In this document: one piece after another, positions 1-39,716 of the stretch
Numbering within the stretch: the stretch's first letter is position 1
How the letters are laid out: the number at the start of each line of letters is the position of its first letter
From: Allobosea sp. 67-29
GTDB lineage: Bacteria > Pseudomonadota > Alphaproteobacteria > Rhizobiales > Beijerinckiaceae
NCBI RefSeq assembly: GCF_001898115.1
Contig: NZ_MKSQ01000007.1
Location: 347,324 to 411,323, forward strand
Reading direction: 5' to 3'
Length of the DNA: 64,000 nt
Notes under the pieces: model-generated
Database searches by the model: none
What the model was told of the DNA's origin: nothing
The model's input: only the letters and a program-made list of their open reading frames with translations
Made by a program: the position numbers and the translations under genes

Positions 1-1166
1 CCGGTCCTTATCGCGTCAGCGAGGTCAGGCCGGGCGAATCGCTGACGCTGACACGGCGAACCGACTGCTGGGCCGATTCATTGCCCTTGATGCGCGGCCT
101 CTTCAACGCCGCCGAGATCCGCTACGATTTCTACCGCGACTCCAACGCGCTGTTCGAGGCGTTCAAGGCCGGGCTCTGCGACGTCCGACTCGAAGGCGAT
201 CCGACACGCTGGATGACCGGCTACGACATCCCCGCCGTCCAAGACGGCCGCATCGTCCGCGAGACGCTGCATTTCGACGCGCCGAAGGGCATGACCGGCC
301 TCGTCTTCAACACGCGCCGGCCGATCTTCGCCGATATCCGGGTGCGCGAGGCGCTGGGGCTGCTGTTCGATTTCGAGTGGGTCAATCGCAATCTCTTCTA
401 CGGCGTCTACCGGCGCGCCGGCAGCTTCTTCTCCGATTCGGAGCTGTCGGCCCTGGGCGTGCCGGCCGATGCCCGCGAAAAGGCGCTGCTCGCCGGCTTT
501 CCGGGCGCCGTCCGCGACGACATTCTGAGCGGGGCCTGGCGCCCGTCGGAGACGGATGGCTCGGGCCGCGACCGCAAGCAGGCTCGCAGGGCGCTCGACC
601 TGCTGAACCAGGCGGGCTTCTCCCTGCGCGAGGGTTCCCTGCGCAATCGCAAGGGCGAGCCCTTCGACTTCGAGATCATGGTGACGAGCCGCCCGCAGGA
701 GCGGCTGGCGCTGAACTACGCCCAGTCGCTGGTGCGGCTCGGCATTGCCGCGCAGGTCCGGCTGATCGACGACGTGCAGTATTGGCGCCGGCTTTCCGCC
801 TTCGATTTCGACATGATCCAGTGGACCTGGCCGGCCTCGGCCTCGCCCGGCAACGAGCAGATCGGCCGCTGGGGCTCGGCCAATGCCGAACGCCGCGGTG
901 CGCTCAACTATGCGGGCGTGAAGTCCCCGGCCGTCGACGCGACCCTGCAGGCGCTGCTGCGGGCACGCCGGCGGGAGGAGTTCGTCGCCGCCGTGCGAAC
1001 CCTGGACCGCCTGCTGATCTCGGGCTTCTACGTGGTGCCGCTCTACTACTTGCCGGACACCTGGCTGGCCCATGCGCGCGACGTCGTGCTGAGCGGGCGG
1101 CAGCCGTCCTATTTCCTGGCCAACGAGACGCTGGCGCGCCTTTCGGCGCCGGCCGCGGCAAACTGA
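1..1166 (+). CDS. Extracellular solute-binding protein, family 5 (YejA-like), 3' part only
   Basis: The frame is open from the first complete codon at position 3, so the gene starts before the window; about 387 C-terminal residues are visible and the signal peptide is missing. The fragment begins with G-P-Y-R-V-S-E and contains FEAFKAG-x-CDVRLE, FDFEWVN and a final FYVVPLYYLPDTWLA segment, all typical of periplasmic oligopeptide-binding proteins of the YejA/DppA type. Such proteins deliver peptides or related solutes to an ABC importer in the inner membrane. No permease or ATPase gene is visible downstream; they would have to lie upstream or elsewhere. The next gene starts 11 nt after the stop, so the two are probably co-transcribed. 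Ligand unknown. Confidence 0.9.
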   Translation, partial: GPYRVSEVRPGESLTLTRRTDCWADSLPLMRGLFNAAEIRYDFYRDSNALFEAFKAGLCDVRLEGDPTRWMTGYDIPAVQDGRIVRETLHFDAPKGMTGLVFNTRRPIFADIRVREALGLLFDFEWVNRNLFYGVYRRAGSFFSDSELSALGVPADAREKALLAGFPGAVRDDILSGAWRPSETDGSGRDRKQARRALDLLNQAGFSLREGSLRNRKGEPFDFEIMVTSRPQERLALNYAQSLVRLGIAAQVRLIDDVQYWRRLSAFDFDMIQWTWPASASPGNEQIGRWGSANAERRGALNYAGVKSPAVDATLQALLRARRREEFVAAVRTLDRLLISGFYVVPLYYLPDTWLAHARDVVLSGRQPSYFLANETLARLSAPAAAN

Positions 1167-10119: not shown

Positions 10120-10148
10120 TTGCGGAACACAAGGCGAACAGCTATAGT
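10120..10148 (+). promoter_or_regulatory. lexA promoter with LexA (SOS) box in its spacer
   Basis: A -35 TTGCGG (10120-10125) and a -10 TATAGT (10143-10148) are separated by 17 nt. A perfect alphaproteobacterial SOS box, GAAC-N7-GAAC at 10125-10139, occupies the spacer. LexA bound there would block RNA polymerase, giving the expected autoregulation of lexA independently of the trp-mo read-through transcript. Confidence 0.8.
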
Positions 10149-10190: not shown

Positions 10191-10901
10191 ATGCTCACAC
10201 GCAAGCAACACGAACTCCTGCGCTTCATCCAGGAACGCTTGCGCGAAAGCGGCGTGCCCCCGTCCTTCGACGAAATGAAGGACGCGCTCGACCTGCGCTC
10301 GAAATCCGGCATCCATCGGCTGATCATGGCGCTCGAGGAGCGCGGCTTCATCCGCCGCTTGCCGAATCGGGCACGGGCGCTCGAGGTCATCAAGATGCCG
10401 GACGGGCTTGCCGGCCCGCAGCCGCGCCGCTTCAACCCTGCGGTGGTGCAGGGCGGTCTCGGTACGCACCCCAGCCTCGCCAAGCCGCGCCCGGCCGCGG
10501 TCGAGGACGACGGCCGCTCCCCGGTCGCGATCCCGGTGATGGGCCGGATTGCCGCCGGTACGCCGATTTCGGCGATCCAGAGCCGCAGCCACACGGTGTC
10601 GCTGCCGCCGGACATGCTGGGCGCCGGCGAGCATTACGCGCTCGAGGTGCGCGGCGATTCGATGGTCGAGGCCGGCATTCTCGACGGGGATACCGTCATC
10701 ATCCGGCGGCAGGACACCGCCAATACCGGGGACATCATCGTGGCCCTGATCGACGACGAGGAAGCGACGCTGAAGCGGTTGCGGCGGCGCGGTTCCTCGA
10801 TTGCGCTCGAAGCGGCGAATCCCGCCTATGAAACCCGCGTGCTCGGCCCGGACAGGGTCAAGATCCAGGGTCGCCTGGTCAATCTGCTGCGCCGCTACTG
10901 A
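10191..10901 (+). CDS. lexA: LexA repressor
   Basis: 236 residues from ATG 10191, which opens the conserved [10 protein letters not shown]. Residues 1-65 form the winged-helix DNA-binding domain. The autocleavage site is A122-G123 in R-I-A-A-G-T-P, with catalytic Ser157 in R-G-D-S-M-V and Lys195 in A-T-L-K-R-L. The long linker between the domains is characteristic of alphaproteobacterial LexA. RecA filaments trigger self-cleavage, which derepresses DNA-damage genes. A second operator in this window lies at 38708-38722. Confidence 0.97.
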
Positions 10902-34960: not shown

Positions 34961-37900
34961 TCAGCGCAGCTCGACCGAAACCACGCCGGGCGCGGCACGC
35001 ACCGCATTGGCGACCTGCTGGCTGACCGGATACTTGCCCGGCAACTCGATCTCGACCTCCTGCGCGCCGTCGTCGAGGATCATCACGATCGAGACCTTGC
35101 CGTCGGAGCGCGAGGCCTCGCCGCGCGGCCGGATGCGCTCGGCGATCGAAGACACCGCCTTGTCGTCGCGCAGATAGATCAGCAGATCCTGCTTCTGGCG
35201 CGAGGCGAGGTCGTCGAGCACCTCGACATCCTCGATCCGTGGCCGAACCTCTTCGCCGTCGAGCACCGCCGACAAGCGCAGCACCAGCGCCCTGCCCGGC
35301 TCCAGCAAATCGCGGTAGCGCATCAGCCCTTCAGAGAACAGCACCGCCTCGAACTGGCCGCTCGGATCGGACAGGTTGACGATGCCCATCTTGGAGCCGG
35401 ACTTGGTGCGCCGCTCCGATTTATCGATGACGGAGACCGCGACCTTACCGACGCCGGTGCCGTTGACGCGCACGGTCTGGGAGAAATCGGCATAGCGTTG
35501 GACGCGCAGGCGCTTGAGCACATGCTCGTAATCGTCCAGCGGATGGCCCGAGAGGAAGAAGCCGACAGCCTCGTGCTCGCGCTTCAGCTTCTCGGCCGGC
35601 GCCCAGGGCTCGACCTGCGGGATGCGGAAGGCCTCCTGCACCACGCCGCCGCCGAGCAGGTCGAACTGGCCCGCTGCCGCCTCGTCACGCGTGCGGTTGG
35701 AGAGCGCCAGCATGCCGTCCAGCGCCGCGACGGCCCGGGCACGATCCGCCTCCAGTTCATCGAGCGCTCCAGCCGCGATCAGCGCTTCCAGCGTGCGGCG
35801 GTTGACCAGCCTGGTGTCGATGCGACGGGCCAGATCGGCGAGATCGCGGAACGGGCCGGCGGCCTGTCGCGCCGCGACCAGCGATTCCACCGCTGCCCGG
35901 CCGACGCCCTTGATGGCGCCGAGCGCGTAGAAGATCTTGCCGTCGGCGACATCGAACTCGACGCCGGACTGGTTGATCGCCGGCCGCTCGACCTTGATCC
36001 CGAGACGCTCGGCATCGCGGCGGAATTCCGAGAGCTTGTCGGTATTGCCCATGTCGAGCGTCATCGACGCGGCCAGGAACTCGACCGGGAAATTCGCCTT
36101 CAGATAGGCGGTCTGGAAGGCGACGACGGCATAGGCCGCCGCATGGCTCTTGTTGAAGCCGTAATCGGCGAACTTGGCCAGCAGATCGAAGATCTCGGAG
36201 GCGGTTTCCTTCTTGATCTTGTTCTCGATCGCGCCCTTGACGAAGCGATCGCGCTGGGCGTCCATCTCCGCCTTGATCTTCTTGCCCATGGCGCGGCGCA
36301 GAAGGTCCGCCTCGCCGAGCGAATAGCCCGAGAGCGCCTGCGCCACCTGCATCACCTGTTCCTGATAGACGATGATGCCGTGGGTCTCGCGCAGATAGGG
36401 CTCCATGCCGGGATGGAGATAGGTCGGATCCTCCAGACCGAGCTTGCGGCGGCAATAGGTCGGGATGTTGTCCATCGGGCCCGGCCGGTACAGCGCCACC
36501 AGCGCGATCAGGTCCTCGATGCGGTCGGCCTTCATCTCGACCAGCGCCTTGCGCATGCCGACCGATTCCACCTGGAACACGCCGACCGTCTCGCCCCGCG
36601 CCAGCATGGCGTAGGTCGCAGGGTCGTCGAAGGGGAGCTGCGCCAGATCGATATGGATGCCGCGCTGGGCGATGAGCTTCACCGCGGTCGTCAGCGTCGT
36701 CAGCGTCTTGAGGCCGAGGAAGTCGAACTTCACCAACCCGGCCTGCTCGACCCATTTCATGTTGAACTGGGTCACGCGCATGCCGGTGCGCGGATCGACC
36801 GAGAGCGCGACGAGCTGTTCGAGCGGCCTGTCGCCGATCACCACGCCTGCGGCGTGAGTCGAAGCATGGCGGTGAAGCCCCTCCAGCTTCTGGCCGATTT
36901 CGAGCAGGCGCGCGACGATCGGCTCGTCCTGCGCCGCCTGCTGGAGCTTGGGCTCGCCCTCGATCGCGTCCTTCAGCGAGATCGGCTTGGCCGGGTTCTG
37001 CGGTACGAGCTTGGTCAGCTTGTCGACCTGGCCATAGGGCATTTCCAATACGCGGCCGACGTCGCGCAGCACGCCACGCGCGAGCAGCGTGCCGAAGGTG
37101 ATGATCTGCGCGACGCGCTCCTGCCCGTAATGATGCTTGACGTAGTCGATCACCTCTTCGCGCCGGTTCTGGCAGAAGTCGATGTCGAAGTCCGGCATCG
37201 AGACGCGGTCGGGGTTGAGGAAGCGCTCGAACAGCAGGCCGAAGCGCAGCGGGTCGACGTCGGTGATGGTCAAGGCATAGGCGACGAGCGAGCCCGCGCC
37301 CGAGCCGCGGCCCGGCCCGACCGGAATATCATGGGCTTTCGCCCATTTGATGAAGTCCGAGACGATCAGGAAATAGCCCGGGAACTTCATCCGCGTGATG
37401 ATCGAGAGCTCGAAATCGAGCCGCTTCTCGTAATCCTCGACGGAAAAACCCTCCGCCGGGCCGTGCTTGGCGAGCCGCGCCGCGAGGCCGGCGCGGGCCT
37501 GCGCCTCCAGCTCCTCGGCCTCGTCGCGCCCCTCCTCGCCGAAGCGCGGCAGGATCGGCTTGCGGGTGGTCACGCGCCAATGGCAGCGCATCGCGATCTC
37601 GACCGTGTTGGCCAGCGCCTCGGGCAGGTCGGCGAAGCGCTTCTGCATCTCGGCGCGCGAGGCGAAATAGTGCTCGGGCGTGACACGACGGCGCGTGCCA
37701 TCCGAGACGAGCCGCCCCTCCGCCACCGCGAGCAGCGCGTCATGCGCGTCGAAATCCGCGGGCTTAGCGAAGAAGGGTTCGTTGGTCGCGACGATCGGCA
37801 GATCGGCATCATAGGCGAGGCGCAGGAGATGCGCCTCCAGCGCCGCTTCGTTCTCGCGGCCATGGCGCTGGATCTCGACATAGAGCCGGTCGCCATAGAT

Positions 37901-38437
37901 GCCGGCGAGCGTGGCGAGGCGGGTCGCCGCCACCGGAAGCTGGCCATTGCGCAAAGCCGTGTCGATCGGCCCGTCGCTGCCGCCAGTCAAGGCGATGAGA
38001 TTGTCGTGATAGGCCGCGAGGCGTTCGACCGTCGTCACCGGCTGGCCGGCGCCACCCGTCGCCAGCGCCGCGTCGCTGACGAGCTTCATCAGGTTGCCGT
38101 AGCCGGCCTCGTCCATGGCGAGCAGGACGATATGCGGCAGGCGCTGCGGCTGGACCGGCTTGCGGCCCCCTTCGCCCTCGTCGGCGAAATCGACCGAGAG
38201 CTGGACGCCGGCGATGGGCTGCAGGCCGGAGCCCGAGAGCTTTTCGGAAAACTCCAGCGCCCCGAACAGATTATCGGTATCCGTCAGCGCCAGCGCCGGC
38301 TGGCCATCGGCCGCGGCGAGCTTGGCGATGGTCGCGACCGTCATCGCGCCTTCGAGCAGGGAGTAGCTCGAATGGACATGGAGATGCACGAAGCCGATCT
38401 CCGACAGGATGCGCGCCTCGCCTGCTTCCCGTCCCAT
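34961..38437 (-). CDS. dnaE: DNA polymerase III alpha subunit
   Basis: 1158 residues. The PHP domain opens with V-H-L-H-V-H-S-S-Y-S-L-L-E-G. The catalytic palm has P-D-F-D-I-D-F-C and the metal-binding G-x-G-S-G-A-G-S-L-V-A-Y region. Thumb, fingers, tandem HhH and a C-terminal OB fold complete it. This is the replicative DnaE1 type rather than the mutagenic ImuC/DnaE2. The proofreading exonuclease is separate. An SOS-controlled small gene lies 124 nt upstream on the same strand. The long open frame on the opposite strand is a GC-bias shadow. Confidence 0.98.
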   Translation of the reverse strand: MGREAGEARILSEIGFVHLHVHSSYSLLEGAMTVATIAKLAAADGQPALALTDTDNLFGALEFSEKLSGSGLQPIAGVQLSVDFADEGEGGRKPVQPQRLPHIVLLAMDEAGYGNLMKLVSDAALATGGAGQPVTTVERLAAYHDNLIALTGGSDGPIDTALRNGQLPVAATRLATLAGIYGDRLYVEIQRHGRENEAALEAHLLRLAYDADLPIVATNEPFFAKPADFDAHDALLAVAEGRLVSDGTRRRVTPEHYFASRAEMQKRFADLPEALANTVEIAMRCHWRVTTRKPILPRFGEEGRDEAEELEAQARAGLAARLAKHGPAEGFSVEDYEKRLDFELSIITRMKFPGYFLIVSDFIKWAKAHDIPVGPGRGSGAGSLVAYALTITDVDPLRFGLLFERFLNPDRVSMPDFDIDFCQNRREEVIDYVKHHYGQERVAQIITFGTLLARGVLRDVGRVLEMPYGQVDKLTKLVPQNPAKPISLKDAIEGEPKLQQAAQDEPIVARLLEIGQKLEGLHRHASTHAAGVVIGDRPLEQLVALSVDPRTGMRVTQFNMKWVEQAGLVKFDFLGLKTLTTLTTAVKLIAQRGIHIDLAQLPFDDPATYAMLARGETVGVFQVESVGMRKALVEMKADRIEDLIALVALYRPGPMDNIPTYCRRKLGLEDPTYLHPGMEPYLRETHGIIVYQEQVMQVAQALSGYSLGEADLLRRAMGKKIKAEMDAQRDRFVKGAIENKIKKETASEIFDLLAKFADYGFNKSHAAAYAVVAFQTAYLKANFPVEFLAASMTLDMGNTDKLSEFRRDAERLGIKVERPAINQSGVEFDVADGKIFYALGAIKGVGRAAVESLVAARQAAGPFRDLADLARRIDTRLVNRRTLEALIAAGALDELEADRARAVAALDGMLALSNRTRDEAAAGQFDLLGGGVVQEAFRIPQVEPWAPAEKLKREHEAVGFFLSGHPLDDYEHVLKRLRVQRYADFSQTVRVNGTGVGKVAVSVIDKSERRTKSGSKMGIVNLSDPSGQFEAVLFSEGLMRYRDLLEPGRALVLRLSAVLDGEEVRPRIEDVEVLDDLASRQKQDLLIYLRDDKAVSSIAERIRPRGEASRSDGKVSIVMILDDGAQEVEIELPGKYPVSQQVANAVRAAPGVVSVELR

Positions 38438-38561
38438 GTCCCTCTCCTGCCGCGGCGCCGCGACTCGTCCAGCCGCCTCTATCGCTTATGCCGCCGCGGC
38501 CCTGCCGGCGTCGAGGCCGATCCCGCCGGCACGGGCCGGCTGTGGATGACTCCTGCCGCGA

Positions 38562-38672
38562 TCAGACATGCGGGCCGGAGAGAAGTGCGGCCCAGAGCCA
38601 GATCATGCCCAGGAACACCGCCAGCGAAGTGATCTCGGCCAGCCCGGCGGCGAATTTTCGCGCTGCAGTCAT
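38562..38672 (-). CDS. SOS-controlled small membrane protein (36 aa), SidA-like candidate
   Basis: 36 residues from ATG 38672 to TGA 38562-38564. The N-terminus is short and basic (M-T-A-A-R-K-F-A-A-G). One membrane helix follows at about residues 15-32 (S-L-A-V-F-L-G-M-I-W-L-W-A-A-L-L) and then a short S-G-P-H-V tail. A strong GGAGG lies 6 nt before the ATG. The promoter at 38702-38729 has a perfect LexA box in its spacer. Size, topology and control match SidA of Caulobacter, a 29-residue SOS-induced division inhibitor that acts on FtsW/FtsN; sequence homology is not claimed. dnaE starts 124 nt downstream. Confidence 0.72.
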   Translation of the reverse strand: MTAARKFAAGLAEITSLAVFLGMIWLWAALLSGPHV

Positions 38673-38701
38673 GACGAACCTCCGTCGTTCTCGATAGGTT
38701 C

Positions 38702-38729
38702 ATTTTAGTTCATGTTTTGTTCTGGTCAA
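38702..38729 (-). promoter_or_regulatory. SOS promoter: LexA box between -35 and -10
   Basis: Reading the minus strand: -35 TTGACC (38729-38724), 16-nt spacer, -10 TAAAAT (38707-38702). The spacer contains GAAC-N7-GAAC at 38722-38708, a perfect match to the LexA operator upstream of lexA in this same window. Transcription would start near 38694 and give a leader of about 22 nt. LexA binding would physically cover the promoter. Confidence 0.8.
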
Positions 38730-38918
38730 TCGCACTCGTTGAAACGCGCGGCCGCCCGGCTCGAAAGAGTCAATGATCGCTTAACGACTCGGATATTCAG
38801 CGTGGTTTCGCCAGCGACCGCCCAGCCTGAAAATTCATCGCGCCCTCATTCCGGGGAGCCATTTCATCGGCAATGGCGTCTGGAAGGACGTTCTGGAAGG
38901 CTCCGGAACCATCGGACG

Positions 38919-38961
38919 CATCCTTCGAGACGCGCTTGACCGCGCGCCTCAGGATGAGGGC
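38919..38961. repeat. REP-like palindromic repeat
   Basis: The arms CATCCTTCGAGACGCGC and GCGCGCCTCAGGATG flank TTGACC, followed by AGGGC. The structure matches the dispersed repeat type with CTCATCCTGAGG and CTCGAAGGATG ends that is frequent in Rhizobiales. A related copy is at 5740-5788. Confidence 0.65.
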
Positions 38962-39026
38962 TGCCGTGCGTGTCGTCCTTTCGGATTCCCGGGCCGCCGC
39001 TGCGGGCGATCCCAGACTGCAGCCGC

Positions 39027-39716
39027 TCAGCGCAGCGGAACGACCAGCCCGTCGCGGATCGTCACCTGGCGATCCATCTGACGCGCGAGTTCAAGGTTGT
39101 GCGTCGCGATCAGGGCCGCCAGCCCGGAGGCGCGGGCGAGCGCGATCAGCGTGCCGAAGACATGCTGCGAGGTGTGCGGATCGAGATTGCCCGTCGGCTC
39201 GTCGGCCAGCAGCAGGCGCGGGCCGTTGGCGACGGCCCGGCCGATGGCGACGCGCTGCTGCTCGCCGCCGGAAAGCTCTCCGGGCAGATGGTCGAGCCGC
39301 TGGCCGAGGCCGAGGAAGCTCAGGAGCTCGGTCGCACGCTCTTCGGCCTCGCCCCGGTCGAGGCCGCGGATGCGCTGCGGCAGCACCACGTTCTCCAGCG
39401 CCGTGAACTCCGGCAGCAGATGGTGGAACTGGTAGACGAAGCCGATCTCGGTGCGGCGCAGCCGCGTGCGCCCCTTGTCGTCGAGCTTGGTCGTCGCGAG
39501 CCCGCCGACGAAAACTTCGCCGGCATCCGGCTTCTCGAGCAGCCCGGCGACGTGCAGCAGGGTCGACTTGCCGGTGCCGCTCGGCGCGACCAGCGCGACG
39601 ACCTCGCCTGGCCAGAGCGCGAAATCGGCCTTGCGCAGCACCTCGAGCGGCGCGTCGGCCTGTGGATAGAAGCGCTCGACCTGCGAGAGGAAGAGCGTCG
39701 GCGTCTCCTGTGCCAT
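39027..39716 (-). CDS. lolD: Lipoprotein-releasing ABC transporter ATPase
   Basis: 229 residues. Walker A is A-P-S-G-T-G-K-S-T, the signature L-S-G-G-E-Q-Q-R-V, and Walker [27 protein letters not shown] is the Q-loop region typical of the LolD/MacB group. It powers release of outer-membrane lipoproteins from the inner membrane to LolA. It follows lolC by 2 nt. Confidence 0.96.

What the first reader, a model, noticed from the sequence alone, without database searches (positions are those of the whole stretch)
38562..38729. SOS-controlled 36-residue membrane peptide, candidate SidA-like division inhibitor
Seen: a 36-codon gene with one hydrophobic helix, GGAGG 6 nt before ATG, and a promoter (TTGACC, 16 nt, TAAAAT) whose spacer holds a perfect GAAC-N7-GAAC box at 38708-38722. 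Known: this is the alphaproteobacterial LexA operator, and Caulobacter SidA is a 29-residue SOS-induced membrane peptide that blocks division. Inference: this gene is a checkpoint peptide of the same type in a Rhizobiales-like host. It is short enough to be missed by normal annotation.
Basis: partly seen in the sequence, partly recalled or inferred. Interest (0 to 1): 0.82.

Follow-up and report, generated by a model that had tools for sequence, protein, structure and literature searches.

The report
SidA-type SOS division-checkpoint peptide
A tiny, easily overlooked membrane-peptide gene beside the DNA-polymerase gene dnaE, probably switched on by DNA damage, sits at the same place as Caulobacter's cell-division brake SidA and belongs to a family found in many Alphaproteobacteria.

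Summary
In this Bosea genome a 36-codon gene (38562-38672, minus) encodes one membrane helix. Gene, frame and position before dnaE are kept in 36 of 36 other genus genomes examined, with coding constraint; at least one box with at most one mismatch in 33 of the 36. The same trio (box, 25-60 aa membrane ORF, dnaE) occurs in 57 of 110 sampled genomes of the order, against a mean of 0.15 in shuffles, and in other orders. In a Caulobacter genome with a beta clamp identical to the solved one, the peptide at this place has 29 codons and matches NCBI's SidA model at 72 bits. A profile from other families recognises both peptides (0 of 2000 shuffles as good); NCBI's SidA model and a Caulobacteraceae-only profile do not recognise Bosea. 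Best reading: a SidA orthologue, induced by LexA cleavage, that arrests division at the FtsW/FtsI/FtsN complex. Regulation and homology rest on sequence; induction and division arrest are inferred.

The parts
38562..38672 (-). 36-codon gene of the SidA-type membrane peptide; predicted single helix 3-31, most hydrophobic window 14-31, R5/K6 at the N-terminal side
   Evidence: found in 36 of 36 genus relatives; pooled pN/pS 0.35 in frame against 1.39 and 1.91 in the other two frames; hydropathy; AlphaFold2 model, mean pLDDT 92.9
38679..38683 (-). Shine-Dalgarno GGAGG, 6 nt before ATG
   Evidence: an SD-like motif in 35 of 37 genus loci
38708..38722 (-). LexA box 1, GAACAAAACATGAAC, inside the -35/-10 spacer
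   Evidence: at most 1 mismatch in 34 of 37 genus loci
38687..38701 (-).
   Evidence: at most 1 mismatch in 31 of 37 genus loci
38724..38729 (-). -35 element TTGACC (TTGACG in most relatives)
   Evidence: TTGAC in 37 of 37 genus loci
38702..38707 (-). -10 element TAAAAT
34961..38437 (-). dnaE, replicative DNA polymerase III alpha subunit, directly downstream; the syntenic anchor of the family
   Evidence: downstream of the peptide in 37 of 37 genus loci and 23 of 26 fetched distant HMM hits
10191..10901 (+). lexA, the repressor gene, in the same window (start codon chosen from the sequence)
   Evidence: TIGR00498, 177.6 bits, over its cut-off
10125..10139 (+). GAAC-N7-GAAC box 51 nt before lexA, expected autoregulation

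Best explanation
The gene is the Bosea orthologue of Caulobacter sidA. In undamaged cells LexA sits on two boxes in and just after the promoter and silences it. After DNA damage RecA filaments trigger LexA self-cleavage, the promoter fires and a 36-residue single-pass inner-membrane peptide is made. By its homology to SidA it binds the late divisome in the plane of the membrane (FtsW, with FtsI and FtsN nearby) and holds back septal wall synthesis until the damage is repaired. Shown from sequence: the gene, coding constraint, promoter, paired boxes, conservation, synteny with dnaE and with Caulobacter sidA, family-level similarity, and a predicted helix. Inferred: induction, membrane insertion with the N-terminus inside, binding to FtsW, and division arrest.
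For: Found in 36 of 36 genus relatives, each before dnaE; of 37 loci, 34 ORFs are exactly 36 codons, the other three 34. Coding constraint. Both boxes conserved. recA and ssb have such a box 123 and 90 nt before their ATG in the same genome, and lexA lies in the window with its own box. A profile of Bosea-type peptides alone found distant peptides elsewhere in the order; of the 26 best distant hits fetched, 21 have a perfect box within 300 bp upstream and 23 have dnaE downstream, neither of which the profile knew. Order sample: 57 of 110 with box plus TM ORF, shuffles 0.15. In G905, one of three genomes with 100% clamp identity, a box, GGAGG and a 29-codon ORF stand before dnaE; that peptide hits NF033228 div_inhib_SidA at 2.2e-20, 72.3 bits, cut-off 35. 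SidA is 29 aa and acts on FtsW (PMC4211646 passages); its promoter is strongly induced by mitomycin C (PMC5189948 passage). A profile built without the Bosea family scores Bosea 25.4 bits and the Caulobacter peptide 16.0 bits, 0 of 2000 segment shuffles as good for either.
Against: No expression, translation or phenotype data. NCBI's SidA model does not recognise the Bosea peptide at E <= 1, and a Caulobacteraceae-only profile does not either (351 of 2000 shuffles as good); the link runs through intermediates and synteny. The [RK][DE] pair of SidA before the helix is not kept in Bosea, which has a Glu three residues on. Not universal: in the order sample 43 of 110 had neither a perfect box nor a profile hit in 600 bp (41 after correction of two misplaced loci). 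Three of the 37 genus loci lack a recognisable box.
Confidence: 0.75

Rival explanations
1. The boxes serve dnaE: damage induces the replicative polymerase through a longer transcript, and the ORF is a leader peptide or a by-product.
For: No intrinsic terminator found between ORF and dnaE, same strand, a gap of only 124 bp in Bosea, and ORFs that end within a few bases of the estimated dnaE start in some relatives, so read-through is plausible.
Against: Purifying selection on the amino-acid sequence; SD-like motif kept in 35 of 37 loci; a family alignment with a near-invariant Phe; the Caulobacter counterpart is SidA, a demonstrated inhibitor (PMC4211646 passages). In Bosea a separate conserved block with a GANTC site stands before dnaE in 14 of 15 aligned loci.
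Confidence: 0.1
2. It is an SOS-induced membrane-active toxin of the TisB kind that depolarises the membrane and gives persistence, not a divisome inhibitor.
For: TisB is also short, single-helix and LexA-controlled (recalled).
Against: The most hydrophobic window has a low moment (0.08-0.12 in the five members computed), which does not suggest an amphipathic pore former; no TisB yardstick was computed. Homology and synteny point to SidA.
Confidence: 0.06
3. Orthologous to SidA but with a different target in Bosea, for example an elongation or polar-growth enzyme, since Hyphomicrobiales differ from Caulobacter in growth mode.
For: Identity to SidA is about 21% in the family alignment and the acidic residue is shifted; polar growth of the order is recalled.
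Against: Helix length, position of the Phe and the type of regulation are kept.
Confidence: 0.09

Closest known systems
SidA of Caulobacter crescentus (NCBIfam NF033228, div_inhib_SidA)
   Same: Same place directly upstream of dnaE on the same strand, LexA box upstream, GGAGG before the start, about 30 codons, one hydrophobic helix, a Phe kept in the middle of the helix.
   Different: 36 instead of 29 residues; two perfect LexA boxes in tandem (about 97% of Caulobacter SOS promoters carry one, PMC12700426 passage); not recognised by NF033228; Glu shifted by three residues; a W-x-W near the outer end.
YneA (Bacillus), SosA (Staphylococcus), ChiZ (Mycobacterium)
   Same: DNA-damage-induced small membrane proteins that stop a late step of division; YneA binds FtsW (PMC13396833 passages).
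   Different: YneA and ChiZ have a LysM domain, SosA an extended helix. That they use other LexA boxes and lie away from dnaE is recalled. Analogues; no relationship was tested here.
DidA of Caulobacter
   Same: Single-helix division inhibitor induced by DNA damage.
   Different: 71 aa, SOS-independent, binds FtsN (PMC4211646 passages).
TisB of Escherichia coli
   Same: Short SOS-induced membrane peptide (recalled).
   Different: Depolarising toxin with antisense control (recalled); not compared here.

Membership tests
SidA-type SOS division inhibitors | LexA operator in the promoter | tested here: met
   two boxes, 38708-38722 and 38687-38701; conserved; same form of box at recA, ssb and lexA of the genome. 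Binding itself was not testable
SidA-type SOS division inhibitors | very short single-pass membrane peptide | tested here: met
   36 aa, hydrophobic window 14-31, one predicted helix 3-31
SidA-type SOS division inhibitors | same genomic place as sidA (upstream of dnaE, same strand) | tested here: met
   Caulobacter loci L249, L254, L255; the L254 peptide is named by NF033228
SidA-type SOS division inhibitors | hit to NCBIfam NF033228 above its cut-off of 35 bits | tested here: not met
   P0001: 0 families at E <= 1; 11 of 48 members of A3 match at E <= 1. The one match that I located outside Caulobacteraceae is 13.2 bits; one Caulobacteraceae member scores only 20.5 bits. Hence I call the Bosea gene a SidA orthologue by place and family profile, not a member of that equivalog model
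SidA-type SOS division inhibitors | statistically supported sequence similarity to SidA | tested here: inconclusive
   through a profile of other families: met, 0 of 2000 shuffles as good for Bosea and for Caulobacter; directly with a Caulobacteraceae-only profile: not met, 351 of 2000
SidA-type SOS division inhibitors | blocks division by binding FtsW (FtsN) | not testable with these tools
   experiment needed
SidA-type SOS division inhibitors | RecA/LexA-dependent induction by damage | not testable with these tools
   experiment needed
TisB-type SOS toxins | amphipathic pore-forming helix | tested here: inconclusive
   hydrophobic moment 0.12 with mean hydrophobicity 0.82 speaks against, but no TisB reference was computed

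The most novel reading that the evidence does not exclude
SidA is not a Caulobacter speciality but an ancient alphaproteobacterial checkpoint, vertically kept beside dnaE since before the split of Caulobacterales and Hyphomicrobiales. It goes unrecognised outside Caulobacteraceae because the peptides are some 25-45 residues long and diverge below the reach of existing models. Its place beside the replicative polymerase gene may itself matter, through shared transcription or coupling of polymerase supply to division arrest.
Probability: 0.65. Interest if true: 0.75.

Novelty: new member of a known kind. Interest (0 to 1): 0.64.

Why it matters
It gives Bosea, and by extension many Hyphomicrobiales, a concrete candidate for a damage checkpoint of cell division, with dozens of natural variants of a 30-residue peptide to map what such an inhibitor needs. 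It also shows how to find it: look in front of dnaE for a LexA box. In the ten literature searches named in the report I saw no paper that describes sidA beside dnaE or sidA relatives in Rhizobiales.

Tried and rejected
Pfam, PHROGs and PDB sequence searches of the Bosea peptide gave nothing; NCBIfam nothing for it. MipZ as a Caulobacter marker failed: the own genome gave only weak ParA-like hits; the beta clamp was used instead. Rejected as main readings: chance ORF, dnaE leader, TisB-type pore. The second, weak hit in G006 (L038) is not beside dnaE and was left as a note. The structure job of A1 was unfinished at nine attempts and finished; a single helix was expected, so it adds little. Modell 2011 and da Rocha 2008 are not held; their content is taken from held papers that cite them, or recalled. 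Two papers that the searches listed for 'sida' together with Rhizobiales or Brucella (PMC9638019, PMC10811719) mean the Sidak test.

Errors of my own: one search did not turn minus-strand loci (redone); mis-turned L046, which lies near a contig end; the dnaE start was misplaced for L051 and L065, which count as negatives although one search shows the peptide in both, with a perfect box in L051 and a one-mismatch box in L065. A few of the 57 ORFs picked (for example in L296, L299, L309) do not look like family members. Note 5 asks itself '28 of 30'; the count is 23 of 30. Note 7 gives approximate places for two motifs; they are 38540-38548 and 38462-38466, and the lexA box is 51, not 52, nt before the ATG. 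The class survey has no shuffle control.

Full report
Observation. The minus strand reads -35 TTGACC (38729..38724), 16-nt spacer, -10 TAAAAT (38707..38702), GGAGG (38683..38679), ATG at 38672, stop ending at 38562: MTAARKFAAGLAEITSLAVFLGMIWLWAALLSGPHV. It is the only promoter-like site found in 38400-39030. By motif count alone the boxes would not convince (4 in the window, 1.23 expected); conservation does.

Genus. Of 40 related loci with record titles, 30 say Bosea, one Boseaceae, seven only Rhizobiales or Hyphomicrobiales bacterium, one Beijerinckiaceae and one Methylobacterium. All 36 same-genus genomes examined carry the peptide. That search counted 38 of 61 genomes, the own genome and one stop-containing hit at E 0.09 included; the other 23, of other families, had none by single-sequence search. 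With the own copy that makes 37 loci: 34 have 36 codons and 3 have 34; box 1 is kept with at most one mismatch in 34, box 2 in 31, at least one perfect box in 26, an SD-like motif in 35, TTGAC in 37. dnaE follows on the same strand in 37 of 37. Over 34 distinct 36-codon genes pooled pN/pS is 0.35, against 1.39 and 1.91 in the other frames. A DNA alignment of 15 sequences (the window and 14 of the other 36 loci) shows the promoter block as the conserved island in variable flanks. AlphaFold2 gives one helix, residues 3-31, mean pLDDT 92.9.

The regulator. I fetched 20 of the 100 boxes in the genome, chosen mostly for an A-rich core, so this is no unbiased count. Ten ORFs near ten of them went to Pfam: one is RecA and one SSB, with the box 123 and 90 nt before the ATG; one is a radical-SAM protein, one has a DnaA-type C-terminal domain, one is a phage-type integrase, two matched other domains and three had no family. 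The other ten were not assigned. lexA itself lies in this window (10191-10901, +) with a box 51 nt before it. The Caulobacter operator is GTTC-N7-GTTC, the same motif read from the other strand (PMC12700426 passage; PMC9578287 table).

Beyond the genus. A profile of 25 Bosea-type peptides was run on 397 genomes of the order; 185 had a match at E <= 1, most of them weak and many inside long frames, probably chance. Of the 26 best distant hits fetched as loci (L043-L068), 21 have a perfect box within 300 bp upstream and 23 have dnaE downstream. The profile knew neither. I then turned to dnaE as anchor. Class: 191 of 193 genomes have dnaE at E <= 1e-200; I read the upstream region of 110 of them (30 best-scoring, 80 that I picked, about 2 Mb or larger), and 19 of 110 show box plus TM ORF, in 13 families, 12 of them outside the order (no shuffle control). 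A further 20 genomes chosen by hand gave 12 of 20. Order, drawn evenly by the tool at completeness of 95 or more: 112 genomes; two dropped (one with a partial dnaE, one without a usable hit); of 110, 61 have a perfect box in either direction within 600 bp and 57 box plus a 25-60 aa TM ORF on the dnaE strand; 20 rounds of shuffles gave means of 1.8 and 0.15, the reversed motif 3 and 0. A profile of 41 peptides, 38 of them from these same genomes, hits forward ORFs in 58 of 110 genomes and one reverse-strand ORF; six of the 58 lack a perfect box, the best near-box having 1 mismatch in five and 2 in one (no chance estimate for these). 43 of 110 have neither (41 once L051 and L065 are counted rightly); I did not test whether they carry the gene elsewhere.

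Caulobacter. Of 385 class genomes only one family reached 76-82% identity; the next best was 61%. Of 299 genomes searched in that family three are 100% identical. In 30 genomes of the family that I chose, 23 have box plus short TM ORF before dnaE, 6 do not, and one dnaE lies at a contig edge. In G905 the box ends 49 nt before the ATG of a 29-codon ORF with GGAGG. NCBIfam names that peptide SidA (NF033228, 2.2e-20); the near-identical peptides of G939 and G886 were read but not scanned. SidA is described as a 29-aa inner-membrane protein that acts on FtsW (PMC4211646 passages), with locus tag CCNA_02004 (PMC10769358 passage). So sidA lies directly upstream of dnaE, and the Bosea gene is at the same place.

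Homology. A core aligns almost without gaps across families, with a Phe kept in at least 90% of 48 rows. A profile without the Bosea family gives Bosea 25.4 bits and Caulobacter 16.0 bits, 0 of 2000 shuffles that keep segment composition reaching either. With a profile of 41 peptides, six Caulobacteraceae peptides were equalled or beaten by 0, 1, 0, 0, 1 and 3 of 2000 shuffles. Against: the Caulobacteraceae-only profile does not see Bosea (351 of 2000), and sees two other Hyphomicrobiales peptides only moderately (11 and 7 of 2000); NF033228 matches 11 of 48 rows at E <= 1, and the only match outside Caulobacteraceae that I located is weak, 13.2 bits. Of 11 peptides from other families of the class, six were equalled or beaten by at most 3 of 1000 shuffles, the other five by 15 to 101; those five rest on place and box alone.

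Mechanism. LexA on paired boxes should give tight repression, apt for a gene whose product stops division; about 97% of Caulobacter SOS promoters have a single box (PMC12700426 passage). Damage relieves it; the Caulobacter sidA promoter is strongly induced by mitomycin C (PMC5189948 passage). The peptide is a uniformly hydrophobic helix with a low moment, as expected for binding within the bilayer. SidA overproduction is suppressed by ftsW and ftsI mutations (PMC4211646 passages), and a model that its authors say is not of high confidence places the SidA helix on TM7 of FtsW (PMC13396833 passage). I infer the same kind of action for Bosea.

Literature. Ten searches were seen as listings; I read passages of eight papers that mention SidA. 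None showed an account of sidA beside dnaE (no held paper has sidA, dnaE and Caulobacter together) or of sidA relatives in Rhizobiales. The library lacks most subscription papers, the original SidA paper included, so this is not proof of absence from print.

Verdict. Novelty: a new, divergent member of a known kind, and through it a much wider family than NCBI's model covers.

Noticed in passing
window 10125-10139 and 10191-10901: lexA with its own GAAC-N7-GAAC box lies in the same window.
   Followed up: yes
window 38462-38466 and 38540-38548, minus strand: Between the peptide and dnaE, a GANTC site in the context CGANTCGC (14 of 15 aligned loci) and a DnaA-box-like TCCACA motif (14 of 15); possible separate control of dnaE. 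A GAGTC also overlaps the sidA stop codon in Caulobacter L254.
   Followed up: partly
L035, L036, L037, L042: Genus members with smaller genomes (3.2-3.8 Mb) keep a 34-aa peptide before dnaE, but no good box remains: forms such as GAACAAAACAAATAC.
   Followed up: no
L038 (G006:C11), position 1500 on the minus strand: A weak second relative, ending LRRWLATAGELLALVIFVAMVWIWSALGAGA, not beside dnaE, with a GAAC-N7-GAAC box 190 bp upstream.
   Followed up: partly
L055-L058, L060, L062, L064, L067, L295, L298 (family f36); L375, L378, L385 (f22): Another double operator: a GAAC-N7-GAAC box followed 18 bp later (46 bp in L062) by a GTTC-N7-GTTC box.
   Followed up: no
L280 (G000:C23:246552): A box just before a radical-SAM gene in the same genome, a candidate SOS gene.
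   Followed up: no
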